NCBI GenBank assembly: GCA_900696645.1
Contig: CAADGV010000045.1
Coordinates: forward strand, 1 to 64,000
Direction of reading: 5' to 3'
From: an uncultured Chlorobiota bacterium
GTDB taxonomy: Bacteria > Bacteroidota > Ignavibacteria > UBA10030 > UBA6906
Length of the DNA stretch: 64,000 nt
Shown: in pieces, positions 70 through 18,704 of the stretch
Layout of the letters: each line of letters starts with the position of its first letter
Position numbering within the stretch: position 1 is the stretch's first letter
Made by a program: the position numbers and the translations under genes
Notes under the pieces: model-generated
The model's database searches: none
The model's input: the letters and a program-made list of their open reading frames with translations, nothing else
Told to the model about the DNA's origin: nothing

Positions 70-1736
70 GTGAAGGAAATAGCTAATTCTAAATATTCCT
101 ATGGTCATTTGATACGAACTTACGATAAGGATGGAAATTATATAAGGAGGTGGGCTACTCGTTCGGGCAGCTACGGCAAAACGAAAAGAAAGACTTCGCG
201 ATTGCCCGTTCGGACTCCATTCACATTCACCGGAATGACCACGACGAGATTGAAACCTCTGTGTGGCAACGACTCGCCGTGGTGCAACGAGTATTGTTTG
301 GGGCCCGATAAACTGGCAGGACGCCTCGGAAGATCTCGTAGTTTCTACGGGAAGCAAAATAAAAATCTATAGAAATTCCAATGCCGATACTCTTATATCA
401 TCCCCTCTGATCACCATCTCTGCGTCGGCAGGCAAGATCGTGGTCGCACAGATGAATCAGAATCTCAACAATCCCAACCAGAATGATCGTTTCGATATTG
501 TCGGTTTTGATGGCAAGGAAGTGTCCATCTACTACAACAGCAACAACAACGATTTCGACACTCTACAGCTTCTTACTGCAAGCGATGACGTAAGCGATAT
601 TGCGGTCGGCGATCTCAATAATGACGGATGGAATGATCTCGTCATCGGATACCTTTCATATACCCCGCAAGTTGAAGTGTTCTTGAACGATGGATACGGT
701 AGGTTGGAAACGTCACCAACGTACTCATTTGAAGCTTCCTGCTGTTACACCAATGTCCTTGTCGGTATTGCTGACTTTGGCGGTCCCAATACTGACAGCA
801 CTCGGAACGACAGTTGGAACGACATTATTGTTGGCTCTCATGAAGGTCGAATAGGAATCCTCATCAATACCGGCTCTTCACCGTACTTTGAAGAGGAATT
901 TGCCCAGGAACAGAGCATTGGCGTCTCCGGATACGAATCGCTGAAGCAGATCAGGATTGCAGATGTTCAAAACAAAGATTGCAGATGTTCAAAACAAAGG
1001 CGGGCAAAGCGTTATCGCTTCCATAGCCGGTGGTGGCTTCTTCCAGAATGAATGGTCAACAGGAAGGATACATCTGTTCAAGCACGCAGGCAACCCGGCA
1101 CCTGCCCCGCCACTGGGAATAAGTGCCATCTCTGTTCCCAGGGGCTACGGCAATTACAACGATGCAAAGATCACGTGGCGCGCCAACATCGAACGAGATC
1201 TCGCGGGTTACGCACTGGAGCGTCGCATCACCGGCGTGTGCGGCAACGGAAACTGGTATGTGCTGGCACAACTCGACGAGTCAACCACGGAATATATCGA
1301 TGAGCTTTCAACCGTGGGCGGAAACAACTGCCTTGCTGAGTACAGAGTGAAGGCATTTGATGCAGAGGATCATTACTCCGACCCTTCCGCAGTGGTGCAG
1401 ATCGCATTCGGTAGTGACATTTGGAAAGCAAACGCGGATCAAGGCAACAAGCCCCGGGTCTATGCTCTCCATCCAGCATTCCCCAATCCCTTCAACCCTT
1501 CCACACAAATCAAGTTCGATTTGTCGGAGGATAGCTTCGTATCCCTGAATGCGTTTGATGTATTAGGAAGGAAGGTCAGCGAGATTGCCAACGGTCACTA
1601 CGCAGCGGGGTATCACTCAGCAACATGGGATGCGTCGAAGGTAGCCAGTGGTGTGTACTTTGCGCGGTTTACGGCAACCGATGGGAATGGAAACATGAGA
1701 CTGAACAAAGTCACGAAGTTATTGCTAACTAAATGA
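70..1736 (+). pseudogene. Broken FG-GAP/VCBS-repeat surface protein with T9SS sorting domain
   Basis: The reading jumps frame three times. From about 70 it runs in frame 1 (ending near TYDKDGNYI). From about 144 it continues in frame 3 (EVGYSFGQLRQNEKKDFAIA). From about 270 it is in frame 2, with FG-GAP-like units such as VGDLNNDGWNDLVIG. From about 978 it is in the frame that ends at 1736. The first two jumps each look like loss of one base; the third is a 22-bp tandem duplication. The C-terminal part holds an Ig/fibronectin-like stretch and a type A sorting domain (HPAFPNPFNPSTQIKF, then DVLGRKV and GVYFARF), so the product would be secreted by the type IX system and attached to or released from the cell surface. 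The true N-terminus is not visible. Either a decayed gene or indel errors near a contig end would explain this. Confidence 0.75.
956..999 (+). repeat. 22-bp perfect tandem duplication causing a frameshift
   Basis: ATTGCAGATGTTCAAAACAA followed by AG occurs twice in direct succession (956-977 and 978-999) inside the FG-GAP/T9SS gene. Because 22 is not a multiple of three, the second copy shifts the frame. Removing one copy restores a continuous reading IRIADVQNKGGQSVIA. The copies are identical, so the event is recent or is an assembly or sequencing artefact. Confidence 0.95.
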
Positions 1737-5001: not shown

Positions 5002-5943
5002 ATGAACGAGAAATCCAACGAAGAGAAGCTGGCAGAATTCGAAGCACGTGTCGCCCGCGGCGAGAAAGTCGAGCCCGGCGATTGGATGCCCGACGACTAT
5101 CGCAAAACGCTTATTCGCATGATCGGGCAACATGCCCACAGCGAAATCGTGGGCCAGTTGCCGGAAGGGAAATGGATTCCGTACGCGCCGGGATTCCGCC
5201 GCAAGCTGACGCTGATTGCGAAAGTGCAGGACGAAGCCGGGCACGGACAGCTATTGTACCGCGCCGCAGAAACTCTCGGAAAATCCCGTGAGGAAATGTT
5301 GGAGGAATTGCTTGCAGGCAAGGCAAAGTACGCGAATGTTTTCAACTATCCGACGCCGTCGTGGGCCGATGTCGGTGTGATCGGCTGGCTGGTTGATATG
5401 GCAGCAGTCGTGAATCAAACAATGCTTCAGCAGTCTTCATACGGCCCTTATGCTCGGGCAATGAAGCGCATCTGTTACGAAGAGTCGTTTCACATCAAGC
5501 AGGGGTATGATTTAGTCGCTACGCTTGCGAAAGGAACGCCGGAACAGAAAGCAATGGTGCAGCAGGCAATCGACCGCTGGTGGTACCCGACGCTCATGAT
5601 GTCCGGTCCCCCCGATCATCTCTCGGCACACACGGCGCAGTCGATGAAGTGGAGAATCAAAACCAAAACCAATGAGCAGGTTCGTCAGGAATATGTTGAT
5701 TTGATCGTTCCGCAAATCCGGGCGCTCGGGCTCACCGTCCCTGATGAGAACTGCCACTATGATGAAAAATCCGGCCACTGGCATTACACGCAACCGGATT
5801 GGGAAGAGTTGAGGCGTGTTGTTAACGGTGACGGGCCGATGAACAAGGAGCGGCTTGCTGTTCGACGCAAGGCTCATGAAGATGGCAGGTGGGTACGCGA
5901 GGCGCTGGCTGCAAAACAACGTCAGAAGGAAGCAGTTGCATGA
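5002..5943 (+). CDS. paaA: Phenylacetyl-CoA epoxidase, catalytic subunit A
   Basis: The protein is 313 residues, full length for PaaA. It is a ferritin-like di-iron oxygenase that converts phenylacetyl-CoA to the ring-1,2-epoxide. The iron ligand motifs are visible: QDEAGHGQ (about residues 76-83) and [10 protein letters not shown] (about 159-168). First gene of an operon with paaB, paaC and paaD whose ends overlap by a few bases. The C-terminus runs into the ATGA overlap with paaB. PaaA acts with PaaC as the catalytic pair, in the cytoplasm, in aerobic phenylacetate or phenylalanine breakdown. No promoter was identified in the 135 bases upstream. Confidence 0.97.
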
Positions 5944-14769: not shown

Positions 14770-14793
14770 CTCTGTCCCTTTGTGTCTCTGTGG
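14770..14793 (+). repeat. Fragment of a dispersed CTTTGTG..GTGG-type repeat
   Basis: CTCTGTCCCTTTGTGTCTCTGTGG lies in the gap between the kinase and regulator genes. It resembles the stretch at 53034-53061 (CCTTTGTGCCTTGGTGG) and the reverse-oriented one at 47521-47553. The pieces share the rhythm 'CTTTGTG-CCTTxGTGG' rather than an exact sequence. Confidence 0.4.
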
Positions 14794-14817
14794 CATTGTA
14801 TTATTCCTGAAAGACTC

Positions 14818-15570
14818 ATGATATCTGCAATCATCATCGATGACGAACAATCCTGCATCGACCGCTTAAGCGGCTTGCTGGAAACCCATTGTGCTGAAAC
14901 CATCCGCTTGGCGGGGACTGCCGATTCGGTAGCAAAAGGAATCCAGGCCATTCACAGCACGCAGCCCGGATTGGTTTTTTTAGATGTTCAGATTGGCAGC
15001 GAAACAGGGTTTGATCTACTGCGGCAAATCGGTGAGATTCGCTTCGAGGTGATTTTCACGACGGCGTTCGAGAAGTATGCCGTGCAAGCGATCAAATTCA
15101 GCGCAGCCGACTACCTGCTGAAGCCGGTCGACCCTGATGATCTGCTGCAGGCAGTTGATCGGCTGAAGGCTAAAATTTCGAAAGAAGAAATGTCGCAGAA
15201 GCTGGATGTTCTTTTCCATAATCTGAAAACGATTGAAGGCGCCTCGAAGAAAATCAGTGTTCCGACGATTAACGGATTCGAGTTTCTGCAGGTGGGCGAT
15301 ATCATTCGCTGCGAGTCGGATGTCAACTACACCAGCATCTTCCTCAAAGGAAAGCAAAAGCTGACGGTGGCAAAGACTCTGAAGGAGTTTGAAGAACTTC
15401 TCTCGGAGTACAACTTCTTCCGCGTTCACAACTCCCATCTCATCAATCTCTCGCATATCAAAAAGTACAACAAAGGCACTGGCGGATACGTCACTATGAC
15501 CGACAACTCGGAGGTGGAGGTTTCAACGCGGAGGAAGGATGAGTTTTTGAAGAGGATTGGGGGGATGTGA
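14818..15570 (+). CDS. LytTR-family response regulator
   Basis: The protein is 250 residues from ATG 14818; the in-frame ATG at 14782 adds unlikely residues. The receiver domain (1-120) shows IIIDDE acidic pair, phospho-acceptor Asp in VFLDVQIG and conserved Thr and Lys (TTAFEKYA, LLKPVDP). The C-terminal LytTR DNA-binding domain (about 140-245) includes FFRVHNSHLINLSHIKKY. With the upstream LytS-type kinase it forms a two-component system. The target promoter is not visible. The 83-base gap to the kinase contains a short piece of a dispersed repeat (CCCTTTGTGTCTCTGTGG). Confidence 0.93.
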   Translation: MISAIIIDDEQSCIDRLSGLLETHCAETIRLAGTADSVAKGIQAIHSTQPGLVFLDVQIGSETGFDLLRQIGEIRFEVIFTTAFEKYAVQAIKFSAADYLLKPVDPDDLLQAVDRLKAKISKEEMSQKLDVLFHNLKTIEGASKKISVPTINGFEFLQVGDIIRCESDVNYTSIFLKGKQKLTVAKTLKEFEELLSEYNFFRVHNSHLINLSHIKKYNKGTGGYVTMTDNSEVEVSTRRKDEFLKRIGGM

Positions 15571-15595
15571 TTGATTCGATGGGCTCGGCTGGCAT

Positions 15596-15809
15596 TCTTT
15601 CGCCTCTCCGAGGCTCAACCGTGTGTGTATAGCGCGTTCCCACGACTTCGTCGTGGGTTGAGATCTGCCCGCCACTTCCGTGGCTTGGTGGTGCAACACC
15701 AGGGAGTTCTCTGGATGATGAGGAATCGGAAGCAGTTTCCGGGTTGTGGGTGTGATGAGGCCAGCGGCATTCTGCCGCCTCTGTGAGGTCTCCCAGCCTG
15801 TTTAGCGTT
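15596..15809 (+). repeat. Hairpin-array unit, copy 1
   Basis: A 214-base unit made of short palindromes: GCCTCTCCGAGGC, CCCACGACTTCGTCGTGGG, GCCACTTCCGTGGC, CCAGGGAGTTCTCTGG, GGAAGCAGTTTCC, GCGGCATTCTGCCGC. Many have a TTC-type loop. It starts 26 bases after the LytTR gene stop and is followed directly by a second copy. No convincing reading frame runs through it. The overlapping frames on the minus strand are low-complexity and rich in Arg, Pro and Ser. Confidence 0.9.
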
Positions 15810-16023
15810 CTCTCGCCTCTCCGAGGCTTTTCCGGTGTGTGTTGAGCGCGTTCCCACGACTTCGTCGTGGGTTAAGGTCTGCCCGCCACTTCGTGGCTTG
15901 AGGGTGCAACAACAGGGAGTTCTCTGGATGATGAGGGAAGCGGAAGCAGTTTCCGGGTTGCGGGTGTGATGAGGCCAGCGGCATTCTGCCGCCTCTGCGA
16001 GGTCTCCCAGCCTGTTTAGCGTT
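15810..16023 (+). repeat. Hairpin-array unit, copy 2
   Basis: Second tandem copy of the same unit, offset 213-214 bases from copy 1. The two copies differ only by scattered substitutions and one- or two-base indels (for example GCCACTTCGTGGC here against GCCACTTCCGTGGC). The stem of CCCACGACTTCGTCGTGGG (15854-15872) is fully kept. Changes falling mostly outside or in loop bases suggest the hairpins matter. Confidence 0.9.
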
Positions 16024-16180
16024 GTCTCGGCGAACTTCGTGGCGTATTGGAACCTTCTCGCCATCCCCTGGCTTGATGGATCCAGCATGTAAGTGCGCAA
16101 GTCCCGTAGGGACGACAAACGATAACCCACTGCGTAAGCAGTGGGTTCGAACAAGAAGAAGTTTACCCAAGCCCCGGAGG
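16024..16180 (+). repeat. Degenerate hairpin-rich tail of the array
   Basis: After the second unit come further short palindromes of the same kind: GTCCCGTAGGGAC, AACCCACTGCGTAAGCAGTGGGTT and GCCCCGGAGGGGC. The last lies about 100 bases from the nrdJ stop. The piece is not a third full copy but contains the same style of motifs. The stretch from 15571 to 16287 therefore holds repeats and a terminator and no gene. Confidence 0.7.
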
Positions 16181-16201
16181 GGCGCAAGAATACAAATACA
16201 G

Positions 16202-16241
16202 AACCCCGCCCAATCCTTACATGTCAGGATCGAACGGGGTT
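16202..16241 (-). terminator. Hairpin at the 3' end of nrdJ (probable terminator)
   Basis: The stem AACCCCG (16202-16208) / CGGGGTT (16235-16241) with an inner ATCCT/AGGAT helix lies 47 bases past the nrdJ stop. The U-tract on the minus strand is weak (CTGTATTTG), so the efficiency is uncertain; it could also be bidirectional. Confidence 0.45.
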
Positions 16242-16287: not shown

Positions 16288-18660
16288 TTAACACTTACTC
16301 CACCCGCAGTTCTGGCACAGTACGCAGCCACCGACATGTTCAACGTTGGTTCCGCATTCGGGGCAAGCCATGCTCGTCTTGGGTGTGGCATCGGAAGCAG
16401 TTGACTTCTTCGGTACGCCTTTCATGATCTTTACCGCCGGGGCTCCCTCGTCACGATAAAGCCTCATTCCCTCTTGCTCCCGTTCTTCGATGTAGCGCTC
16501 AAGCACCTTGCCGATGGCGTCCGGAGTTGAGAGAATCTGCTCGCCATTGCCGCCCCACACCGGCATCGGGCCTGAAATACCTTTGAGATGCTTCACTACT
16601 TCACGCGGCTCAATGCCCGAACGCAACGCCAGCGAAATCAGCCTGCTGATGGCCTCGCTTTGTGCTGCTGCATTGCCGCCTGCCTTGCCAATTGCCGAAA
16701 ATACCTCACAAATGCCGTTTTCATCCTCATTAATGGTCACATACAACGTGCCTTCGCCCGTTTTTACCCGTTCGGTAACGCCGTAGGTTCGTGTCGGGCG
16801 GTTGCGGGGAACCCGCTGCACAGATGCCGGGGCTGCCGAGCCTTTCTCTTTCTTCTTGGCAAACTCCTCGGTCTGCAAGATGCCTTCCCGACTTCCCTCG
16901 CGGTAAACAGTAATGCCTTTGAGTCCGGCTTTGTATGCCGTCATGTAAATGTCGGCTACGGTTTCAACGCTAACGTCTTCGGCAAGATTGACCGTCGAGG
17001 AGATTGAGCTATCCACATACTTCTGAATCACTCCCTGCATTTTCACTCGGAAGTAGGGGTCGATGTCGTGTGCCGTTACCACGTAATCCGGCAGATTCTC
17101 ATCATCCCCGAACATCTTCTTAATGAGGGGATGATAGACTTTGTATTCGGTGTACGTGTCGCCGTCGTGGTTCTTTACCTTTCGGCGATAGCTTGTGCAG
17201 AAGATCGGCTCAATGCCGGAGCTTGTCTGCGCCACGATGGATCCCGTACCAACCGGCGGCACCGTGATAACCGTGCTGTTGCGGATGCCGTTTTTCTTGA
17301 TAGCATCCTTGATTTCCTTCGGGAGAGCCTGGATGAACTTGCTCTTTGAATATCCTTCCCATTTGTAGAGGGGGAAGGAGCCTTTTTCTTTCGCCAACTC
17401 TACGGAAGTTTTGTACGACTCGTCGCGGATTACGCGCATGATCTTTTCCGTGGCATCGAGGGCTTCCTGCGAGTCGTATCTGATTTTCATCATCACCAAC
17501 GCGTCGGCAAGTCCGGTAATGCCCAACCCGATACGCCGGTCGGAGCCGACGGCTTTCTTTATTTTGTCGAGGGCGTGGTTCTGCATGTTGTACTCGACCA
17601 CGTTATCCATGAAGCGGGTTGAGATGCGTGTTACCTCGGCAAGCTCGTCGTACATGAAATTGCCCTTCCCGTCCACGAACTTTGCCAGATTGATATTGCC
17701 GAGATTGCACGCTGTGTACGACGCCAACGGCTGCTCGCCGCAGGGATTCGTGCTTGTGAGCGGGTTCGCGTACTCGACGTTGTGATAGTCCTTCATCGTA
17801 TCCCAGAAGATAATTCCGGGTTCGGCGGAAGCGTGGGCATTCTTGATAATCTTATACCACAACTCCTTTGCCTTCACGGTTCGATAGACTTTGCCTCCCC
17901 AGCGGAGATCGAAATCGGCGTCGTTCATTACGGCATTCATGAACTCATGCGTCAGCAAAACGCTGATGTTGGCATGTTGCACCTTGATGCGTCGCGGATC
18001 GTTCTTGATGGTAATGAACTTTTCGACGTCGGGATGGTCGACGCGAATCGTCAGCATCAATGCGCCGCGGCGTCCGGCTTGTGAAACGGTGTTTGTGCTT
18101 TCGCTGAAGAGATTCATGAATGCCGTTGCGCCGGGCGAGTGATCAATCGTCGCGTTGACGGAAGCGCCTTCAGGACGGAGAATCGACAAATCCGTTCCGA
18201 CGCCGCCGCCTGTGCGGTACACCATCGCCGATTCGGTGATGCAGCGGTAGATGCCTTCAAGACTGTCTTCTTCAATAGGGATGACGTAGCAATTGGAAAG
18301 TGTCGGGCGGCGCTTTGCCTCTTCGCGTCCGGCGCCGTGCATTACGCGACCCCCGGGGACGAACTTGAAATCGAACAACAAATTCAAAAACTGGTTGTAC
18401 CAATACTCCTTGCTCGCTTCCGTTGTTTCAACGGAGGCAAGCGCGCGGGCTATGCGGCTCCACATGTGCATCGGGCCCTGTTCGTTCGGGGCGAGATATT
18501 TCGAACGCAGAACATCGGCGGCGAGATCGTTATCGCCGTAATAGTCCTTTGCATCCAATGCAAGGTCGGTGATGTTCGGGTCGAGTGATGTTTTCGCTGC
18601 GTGAGTCTGGGTGGGTTTGGTTGAAACTGTTGGAGCGGGGGATATCTCCTTGTTCGCCAT
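16288..18660 (-). CDS. nrdJ: Class II (adenosylcobalamin-dependent) ribonucleoside-diphosphate reductase
   Basis: The protein is about 790 residues; ATG 18660 is favoured (AAGGG upstream), with ATG 18675 in frame as an alternative. It makes deoxyribonucleotides using B12. Features visible: SNCYVIPIEEDSLEGI (first active-site Cys), the thiyl-radical loop NPCGEQPLASYTACNLG, the PPVGTGSIVAQTSSGIEP segment of the barrel, and GLKGITVYREGSR near the end of the catalytic domain. After a linker the C-terminus carries a TSCPD-like region (TLYVTINEDENGICEVF) and a Cys-rich tail (CPECGT, CVLCQNCGWSKC). It is the only reductase seen here. It has a long leader with its own promoter and hairpin. Confidence 0.96.
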   Translation of the reverse strand: MANKEISPAPTVSTKPTQTHAAKTSLDPNITDLALDAKDYYGDNDLAADVLRSKYLAPNEQGPMHMWSRIARALASVETTEASKEYWYNQFLNLLFDFKFVPGGRVMHGAGREEAKRRPTLSNCYVIPIEEDSLEGIYRCITESAMVYRTGGGVGTDLSILRPEGASVNATIDHSPGATAFMNLFSESTNTVSQAGRRGALMLTIRVDHPDVEKFITIKNDPRRIKVQHANISVLLTHEFMNAVMNDADFDLRWGGKVYRTVKAKELWYKIIKNAHASAEPGIIFWDTMKDYHNVEYANPLTSTNPCGEQPLASYTACNLGNINLAKFVDGKGNFMYDELAEVTRISTRFMDNVVEYNMQNHALDKIKKAVGSDRRIGLGITGLADALVMMKIRYDSQEALDATEKIMRVIRDESYKTSVELAKEKGSFPLYKWEGYSKSKFIQALPKEIKDAIKKNGIRNSTVITVPPVGTGSIVAQTSSGIEPIFCTSYRRKVKNHDGDTYTEYKVYHPLIKKMFGDDENLPDYVVTAHDIDPYFRVKMQGVIQKYVDSSISSTVNLAEDVSVETVADIYMTAYKAGLKGITVYREGSREGILQTEEFAKKKEKGSAAPASVQRVPRNRPTRTYGVTERVKTGEGTLYVTINEDENGICEVFSAIGKAGGNAAAQSEAISRLISLALRSGIEPREVVKHLKGISGPMPVWGGNGEQILSTPDAIGKVLERYIEEREQEGMRLYRDEGAPAVKIMKGVPKKSTASDATPKTSMACPECGTNVEHVGGCVLCQNCGWSKC

Positions 18661-18704
18661 GGGCTGACCCTTCATTCTAGTGTTGCTGACTTCTGTTATT
18701 TTGC

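What the first reader, a model, noticed from the sequence alone, without database searches (positions are those of the whole stretch)
15596..16180. Array of short TTC-loop hairpins in two tandem 214-bp units
Seen: two adjacent units contain the same seven palindromes, such as CCCACGACTTCGTCGTGGG and GCGGCATTCTGCCGC, and a third, degenerate part follows. Copies differ mainly by indels and by changes that keep the stems. The array lies between a two-component system and nrdJ, with no gene. Inference: a REP-like or RNA-structured repeat of unknown type, perhaps transcribed with the regulator or recognised by a transposase.
Basis: seen in the sequence. Interest (0 to 1): 0.65.

Follow-up and report, generated by a model that had tools for sequence, protein, structure and literature searches.

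The report
Gene-less hairpin array of a transposase
The repeated hairpins are DNA end-pieces of a small mobile-element family whose transposase gene is still present at the same spot in a sister species, and the same end-pieces, found beside such genes across many bacterial phyla, contain what databases list as a small RNA called Acido-Lenti-1.

Summary
The array is real. Two 214-bp repeats (91% match) carry a three-hairpin module (H1-H2-H3, ~94 bp). A degenerate third copy and one inverted copy follow (+ + (+) -). The inverted copy contains Rfam Acido-Lenti-1 (RF01687). In a congeneric genome the same site holds + + + - [Y1 transposase gene] + + + + (+) -. A second own-genome site also has a gene-less module pair where that species has the gene. 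A covariance model trained only on the 12 units of this locus in the two genomes hits 61 of 80 named loci carrying related Y1 genes (Acidobacteria, Planctomycetes, Verrucomicrobia, Bacteroidetes and others). Of its 136 hits, 96 lie within 200 bp of the gene and none beyond 2 kb, mostly as inverted repeats around it. Rfam's own Acido-Lenti-1 model gives 69 hits in 29 of these 80 loci, all within 1.1 kb of the gene. Stems covary without G-U excess, pointing to DNA-level palindromes. The transposases carry the Y...Q..HH signature of TnpA-Y1 subclass 1.2, which Quentin et al. 2018 tabulated as having no REP. Best reading: a gene-less relic of a REPtron-like element of subclass 1.2, a new variant of a known kind, that reassigns an Rfam 'sRNA' as DNA ends. 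Movement itself was not shown.

The parts
15597..15690 (+). Module copy 1 (H1 15602-15614, H2 15639-15657, H3 15671-15684)
   Evidence: model R1 88.9 bits
15691..15809 (.). Filler of the 214-bp repeat with extra palindromes (TGGTGCAACACCA 15689-15701, CGGAAGCAGTTTCCG 15727-15741, GCGGCATTCTGCCGC 15764-15778)
   Evidence: not seen in the sister-species units
15810..15903 (+). Module copy 2 (H1 15815-15827, H2 15853-15871, H3 15885-15897)
   Evidence: R1 91.7 bits
15904..15985 (.). Second copy of the filler (CGGAAGCAGTTTCCG 15941-15955, GCGGCATTCTGCCGC 15978-15992)
15986..16078 (+). Degenerate third forward module
   Evidence: R1 26.7 bits, E 1.2e-3 own genome; R2 17 bits, E 0.034
16095..16188 (-). 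Intact inverted module closing the array (H1 rc 16171-16183, H2 rc 16124-16147, H3 rc 16101-16113)
   Evidence: R1 80.9 bits, R2 75.4 bits; hairpins
16100..16145 (-). Rfam RF01687 Acido-Lenti-1 match = H2-H3 of the inverted module
   Evidence: 48.7 bits, gathering 37
16202..16241 (.). Terminator-like inverted repeat after the array; a similar one stands at the same place in the sister species
   Evidence: read
14782..15570 (+). LytTR response regulator, left border
   Evidence: Pfam
16288..18675 (-). nrdJ-type ribonucleotide reductase, right border
   Evidence: Pfam PF02867, PF12637

Best explanation
The array is a gene-less (solo) relic of a REPtron-like element of the IS200/IS605-related tyrosine (Y1, HUH) transposase group that carries the Y...Q..HH signature (TnpA-Y1 subclass 1.2 of Quentin et al.). 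SHOWN: (1) the repeat unit is a three-hairpin module H1-H2-H3 with consensus C[GCCCC-TNC-GGGGC]T - about 30 nt - [8-bp stem, ~4-nt loop]CTA - about 11 nt - C[GCCCC-TNC-GGGGC]T; (2) this module sits next to Y1 genes of this group across phyla, mainly as an inverted pair around the gene; (3) Rfam Acido-Lenti-1 is the H2-H3 part of the module; (4) at this site, and at a second one, the sister species has the gene between the modules and this genome does not. INFERRED: the module folds as a hairpin in single-stranded DNA (for example on the lagging-strand template). The transposase would read loop bases (the conserved T and C of the triloop), the C...T feet and the CTA after H2 as guide sequences, then cut and rejoin the strand. 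Repeated insertion beside existing modules, or replication slippage and recombination between them, would build the arrays. In this genome the unit '- gene +' was lost, by transposase excision or recombination between modules, leaving + + (+) -. The alternative polarity (gain in the sister) is not excluded.
For: Same-site Y1 gene in sister genome G001 (Y1_Tnp E 1.4e-26). Units pair in 98.6% of 216 cells with 5 of 18 pairs changed on both sides. R1, trained on 12 units of this locus in the two genomes only, hits 61 of 80 independent Y1 loci: 96 of 136 hits within 200 bp, 0 beyond 2 kb (247 kb searched there); upstream - 36 / + 9, downstream + 45 / - 6. R2 in 30 loci from a profile search of the phylum: 28 of 30 have a module within 200 bp. 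Rfam's own model: 69 hits in 29 of 80 loci, max distance 1105 bp. Control ORF ends 1.7-1.9 triloop hairpins/kb versus 10.5-11.0/kb at Y1 genes. Genome level: RF01687 over cut-off in 28 of 296 genomes, 23 of them with the Y1 (of the other 268, 108), Fisher p 2e-5. R2 copies: 12, 43, 57, 64, 94, 36, 11 in seven genomes; 0, 0, 0 in three genomes without a Y1 match. Second orthologous site. All 3 own Y1 genes are of this type and have hairpins beside them.
Against: 19 of 80 loci show no R1 match at E<1e-3, and 5 of 28 genomes over the Acido-Lenti-1 cut-off (18 of 60 at E<=1e-3) show no Y1 at E<=1e-30. No clean empty site or target site was found: one test fell on a synteny break. No outgroup fixes the direction of change. 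The 80 loci were retrieved with peptide patterns that include the signature, which biases the motif count though not the flank result. The extra palindromes of the 214-bp unit are unexplained. No activity was tested.
Confidence: 0.84

Rival explanations
1. The hairpins are a structured RNA (Acido-Lenti-1 sRNA, or a 3' UTR element of the LytTR operon) and lie near Y1 genes only because both sit in intergenic or mobile regions.
For: Rfam types RF01687 as sRNA; the array follows a regulator gene on the same strand.
Against: All 69 RF01687 hits in 80 loci lie within 1.1 kb of the gene, with orientation set by the gene. Paired positions have 15 G-T against 57 A-C cells of 2462 (15 against 35 without the loop-closing pair 12-29), whereas RNA should tolerate G-U far more than A-C. 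Forward and inverted copies stand side by side. Other ORF ends are not enriched in hairpins.
Confidence: 0.07
2. Composite: module copies were first spread by the transposase and are now kept as host features (terminator, mRNA end protection, nucleoid protein site) after the gene was lost.
For: Array remains between convergent genes, next to a terminator-like repeat; roles of this sort are hypothesised for REPs (abstract of PMC3733652).
Against: No conservation beyond the two sister species: 14 other relatives with at least 850 bp read downstream of nrdJ lack it. One forward copy is already degenerate.
Confidence: 0.2
3. The gene was never in this genome's array; modules are mobilised in trans by one of the three Y1 genes elsewhere, and G001 gained the gene at both sites.
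For: Three intact Y1 genes of the same group in the own genome; tight inverted module pairs without a gene exist at many places in G001.
Against: Array borders match in both species; the inverted module of the window aligns slightly better with G001's right-hand than left-hand inverted module (scores 121 against 113.5). This weakly favours loss, but does not decide.
Confidence: 0.35
4. Chance palindromes or a local duplication without meaning.
For: Only one other hit (32 bp, 91%) in the genome by plain DNA search.
Against: All covariance-model results.
Confidence: 0.01

Closest known systems
REPtron / RAYT (TnpA-REP, class 2) with GTAG-tagged REPs
   Same: Y1 HUH transposase gene flanked by palindromes; extra copies dispersed in the genome, often as inverted pairs
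   Different: Palindromes are 5-bp stems with TNC triloops in a three-hairpin module; no GTAG/GTGG foot; transposase has the Y...Q..HH motif, not Y...NP
TnpA-Y1 subclass 1.2 (Quentin et al. 2018, PMC6006769)
   Same: Signature Y---Q--HH, ~150 aa, PF01797, low copy
   Different: Paper tabulates 'REP: no' and says generally without terminal secondary structures; its automatic REP search required GT[AG]G and stems of 7-20 nt. Here most examined loci carry the module, also outside Cyanobacteria and Bacteroidetes
IS200/IS605 insertion sequences (IS608, ISDra2)
   Same: Closest solved structures by sequence; palindromic ends; loop T contacted by the transposase (PMC8266576 section 27)
   Different: Copies diverged; gene-less module arrays; presence of tnpB in the loci was not systematically tested
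Acido-Lenti-1 RNA (RF01687)
   Same: Its two hairpins and spacer are H2-H3 of the module; window match 48.7 bits
   Different: Listed as sRNA; here it is part of a longer DNA module tied to a transposase gene
CGTC-tagged REPs (Di Nocera 2013, PMC3733652)
   Same: Short palindromes in intergenic DNA
   Different: 8-9 bp stems, 4-5 nt loops, single hairpins, no associated transposase (sections 6 and 16 read)

Membership tests
REPtron / REP of a Y1 transposase | Palindromic units flank a Y1 HUH transposase gene | tested here: met
   57 of 80 named loci and 28 of 30 phylum loci have a module within 200 bp; none in the window itself, where the gene is missing
REPtron / REP of a Y1 transposase | Many dispersed copies in the host genome | tested here: met
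   12 in own genome (low), 43, 57, 64, 94, 36 and 11 in six others (lower bounds, 150 candidates scored in most)
Classical GTAG REP (RAYT class 2) | 5' GT[AG]G foot and stem of at least 7 bp | tested here: not met
   Foot is C, 3' T; H1 and H3 stems 5 bp
Classical RAYT protein | Y---NP motif; NCBIfam REP_Tyr_transpos cut-off 80 bits | tested here: not met
   Y...Q..HH; 23.6, none listed, 25.6 and 35.3 bits in the four proteins
TnpA-Y1 subclass 1.2 | Y---Q--HH signature with HUH motif | tested here: met
   HUH in 80 and Y...Q..HH in 78 of 80 (pattern-biased retrieval); both in 30 of 30
TnpA-Y1 subclass 1.2 | Placement by the authors' own HMMs or tree | not testable with these tools
IS200/IS605 insertion sequence | Defined ends, target tetranucleotide, near-identical copies | tested here: inconclusive
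   One attempt at an empty site hit a synteny break
Acido-Lenti-1 (RF01687) | Score over gathering cut-off | tested here: met
   48.7 against 37 bits for the inverted module only
Acido-Lenti-1 as a functional sRNA | Conserved as transcribed RNA | not testable with these tools
   No RNA data; lack of G-U excess speaks against

The most novel reading that the evidence does not exclude
A pan-phylum family of three-hairpin DNA modules is the cognate substrate of the Y...Q..HH transposases (subclass 1.2), a group believed to lack REPs. Rfam's Acido-Lenti-1 'sRNA' is not an RNA gene but a fragment of these DNA ends.
Probability: 0.78. Interest if true: 0.7.

Novelty: new variant of a known kind. Interest (0 to 1): 0.63.

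Why it matters
It gives an orphan class of transposases its probable DNA substrate, and explains a database 'small RNA' that a 2026 paper still calls of little-known function (PMC13298647, passage read) and proposes as a possible regulator of protease genes. It supplies a searchable model for annotating many intergenic arrays in Bacteroidetes, Planctomycetes, Acidobacteria and Verrucomicrobia. The module also sets a clear biochemical question: how a single small HUH enzyme reads three hairpins whose stems vary while loops and feet stay fixed.

Tried and rejected
Plain DNA search of the own genome suggested a single-copy array; this was misleading, because the stems vary and only covariance models find relatives. 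DNA search of 150 relatives found the sister array but little else. Relation to CGTC REPs considered and rejected after reading. Protein-coding reading of the 190-aa minus-strand ORF: no Pfam match. Chance similarity at 5135-5153 lies in a coding ORF. Empty-site search with a 13-kb stretch of the sister genome found that its elements sit where synteny breaks between two contigs, so no ends could be defined. In A4 there are more A-C than G-T cells (35 against 15 without pair 12-29); this might mean wobble on the complementary strand, but cells are not independent and I draw nothing from it. Rows dropped: only R1 matches with E<1e-3 in the 80 named loci were counted (136 of the 168 listed; the others are weaker or lie in own-genome loci L003-L005). 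A4 used matches with E<=5e-4 from 65 sources; named loci without such matches were left out. The 5 genomes with RF01687 but no Y1 match were not followed up. G002 was not tested for the Y1 gene. R2 was not run on the 19 named loci without an R1 match. No structure was predicted.

Full report
WHAT IS THERE. TRF finds two 214-bp repeats at 15595-16029 with 91% matches. Most of the listed palindromes are present in both, and hairpin density is the highest in the window. Left of the array is a TPR/His_kinase protein and a LytTR response regulator; right of it, convergent, a ribonucleotide reductase of nrdJ type. The 'third, degenerate part' has on the minus strand a clear Rfam match, Acido-Lenti-1 RF01687, 48.7 bits against a cut-off of 37. 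The own genome is a 4.2-Mb draft in 46 contigs.

THE SISTER SPECIES. Of 40 other genomes searched, only G001 (same genus, 81% identity) has a close copy of the response regulator; three others have 35-48% matches. Directly behind the gene in G001 lie three forward units with the same hairpins and one inverted unit. Then comes an intact 150-aa Y1 transposase gene, four forward units and a degenerate one, another inverted unit, a terminator-like repeat, a further ORF and nrdJ. The protein is Y1_Tnp (E 1.4e-26), closest by sequence among solved structures to IS200-like transposases including ISHp608 (E 1e-8 and 3.5e-8). It scores 23.6 bits against NCBIfam's REP-transposase cut-off of 80. Window and G001 share both borders of the array. 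Of 19 other relatives with nrdJ, the 14 with at least 850 bp read downstream have no array there, and R2 finds no module in their loci.

THE MODULE. Forward and inverted units have the same order of hairpins when each is read on its own strand: H1 (5-bp stem, triloop), H2 (8-bp stem), H3 (5-bp stem, triloop). Over 12 units of this locus in the two genomes 98.6% of 216 cells pair, 5 of 18 pairs have changes on both sides, and sliding the partner by 1-3 columns gives at most 43.5%. I built covariance model R1 from these 12 units only.

INDEPENDENT TEST IN NAMED GENOMES. HUH is present in 80 and Y...Q..HH in 78 of 80; two have internal stops. Simple count: perfect triloop hairpins of stem >=5 occur at 10.8/kb within 200 bp of the gene against 1.5/kb at 2-4 kb; 78 of 80 loci have at least one within 200 bp, with loops TTC, TCC, TAC, AAC and their complements dominating. 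Ends of 149 other ORFs in the same loci have 1.7-1.9/kb. R1 then gave 136 hits at E<1e-3 in 61 of 80 loci: 96 within 200 bp, 22 at 200-500, 13 at 500-1000, 5 at 1-2 kb, none beyond (247 kb searched there). Within 200 bp, upstream hits are 36 minus and 9 plus, downstream 45 plus and 6 minus; 57 loci have a hit there and 25 have both ends in inverted orientation. Nineteen loci have no hit at all. A second set of 30 loci, taken from a profile search of the phylum, gave 28 of 30 with an R2 module within 200 bp (two of the 30 are own-genome and G001 loci, leaving 26 of 28; R2 was trained on the R1 matches).

ACIDO-LENTI-1. With Rfam's own model and cut-off, the 80 loci (all searched whole) hold 69 matches in 29 loci: 47 within 200 bp of the Y1 gene, the farthest at 1105 bp. 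44 of 69 fall inside an R1 hit on the same strand. Conversely, taking the best RF01687 match of 29 genomes of the phylum, 7 of 29 have a Y1 gene of this group within 1.5 kb; in the listed matches, pairs on one contig lie 21-651 bp apart in 12 Y1 loci (only near pairs were put into that script). At genome level 23 of 28 genomes over the cut-off have the Y1 at E<=1e-30 against 108 of the other 268 (Fisher p 2e-5; for E<=1e-3 42 of 60 against 89 of 236, p 6e-6). Genomes are related, so these p-values are optimistic. Five (eighteen) positive genomes lack the Y1 match.

DNA OR RNA. In 144 aligned R1 matches 96.9% of cells pair; all 18 pairs have changes on both sides, 510 cells against 105 in shuffles (the alignment is fitted to the structure, which favours it). 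Of 2462 cells 15 are G-T and 57 A-C (15 and 35 without the loop-closing pair 12-29), so there is no G-U excess. That RNA helices normally show many G-U pairs is general knowledge, not tested here. Together with gene-bound orientation this favours palindromes acting as DNA. Conserved unpaired letters: C before and T after H1, T and C of the triloops, CTA after H2, and less strictly C before and T after H3.

COPIES AND THE SECOND SITE. R2 (trained on the 144 matches) finds 12 modules in the own genome, 43 in G001, 57 in G002, 64, 94, 36 and 11 in four others of the phylum, and 0 in each of three genomes without Y1 match (most counts are lower bounds; the ten genomes were chosen by me). In G001 many stand as close inverted pairs. 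One own-genome pair (G000:C11, L252 2928-3020 + and 3125-3219 -) was compared with three relatives: the orthologous site in G001 holds + - gene + - + -, the gene again being a Y1; the other two gave no match. So at both sites compared the sister has the gene and this genome does not. No outgroup sequence settles loss against gain.

HOW IT MAY WORK. By analogy with TnpA of IS608/ISDra2 and TnpA-REP (loop T and irregularities contacted, strand-specific; PMC8266576, abstract and sections 27 and 29 read) the enzyme probably binds the folded single strand through loop and foot letters, leaving stems free to vary. This is inference. Array growth by repeated insertion at module ends, or by slippage, is also inference.

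LITERATURE. Quentin et al. 2018 (PMC6006769; abstract, sections 12, 15 part 1, 18, 38 and passages read) define subclass 1.2 by Y---Q--HH, list 'REP: no' and a range of Cyanobacteria and Bacteroidetes. Their automatic REP search required GT[AG]G and stems of 7-20 nt, which these modules would fail. Di Nocera 2013 (PMC3733652; abstract, sections 6 and 16) does not describe such modules in the parts read. Weinberg 2010 (PMC2864571; passages) lists Acido-Lenti-1 as 'probably' an RNA and probably not cis-regulatory. PMC13298647 (passage) says little is known of its function; PMC10059132 (passage) only counts copies. Searches for 'Acido-Lenti-1' (3 papers), 'TnpAREP'/'subclass 1.2' (5), 'REPtron' (4), 'TnpAY1' (2), RAYT with REPIN since 2019 (4) and mixed terms showed no paper linking Acido-Lenti-1 or such modules with Y1 transposases. 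Titles and abstract starts only were seen for most, and subscription journals, preprints and ISfinder were not available.

VERDICT. Observation confirmed; a REP-like array belonging to a Y1 transposase element is well supported; RNA function is not. Known kind (REPtron), new variant (subclass 1.2 with three-hairpin modules), with the reassignment of RF01687 as the most useful consequence.

Noticed in passing
window 15691-15809 and 15904-15985: Extra palindromes of the 214-bp unit (CGGAAGCAGTTTCCG, GCGGCATTCTGCCGC and others) have no counterpart in the sister-species units; origin unexplained.
   Followed up: partly
L006 (G000:C33:216000-225500): Two Y1 genes lie about 5 kb apart in the own genome, each with its own hairpin type; the first has single long palindromes (CCCACAACTTTAGTTGTGGG) rather than full modules.
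   Followed up: partly
L219 (G001:C2:120500-133500): Module clusters of the sister genome sit where synteny with the window genome breaks (C33 on one side, C17 on the other), as if the repeats had taken part in rearrangement.
   Followed up: no
genomes G180, G197, G217, G368, G378: Carry Acido-Lenti-1 over the cut-off but no Y1 match at E<=1e-30: either the gene is lost or another transposase acts.
   Followed up: no
literature, PMC6006769 section 27 (Class 3): Class 3 Y1 proteins of Acidobacteria and Planctomycetes have CnGA-footed structures with ~600 copies in Solibacter usitatus; Weinberg's 'Solibacter-1' motif may be the same thing (guess).
   Followed up: no
window 955-999: Two perfect 22-bp tandem copies where ORFs 263-1051 and 957-1736 overlap, possibly a frameshifting duplication.
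   Followed up: no
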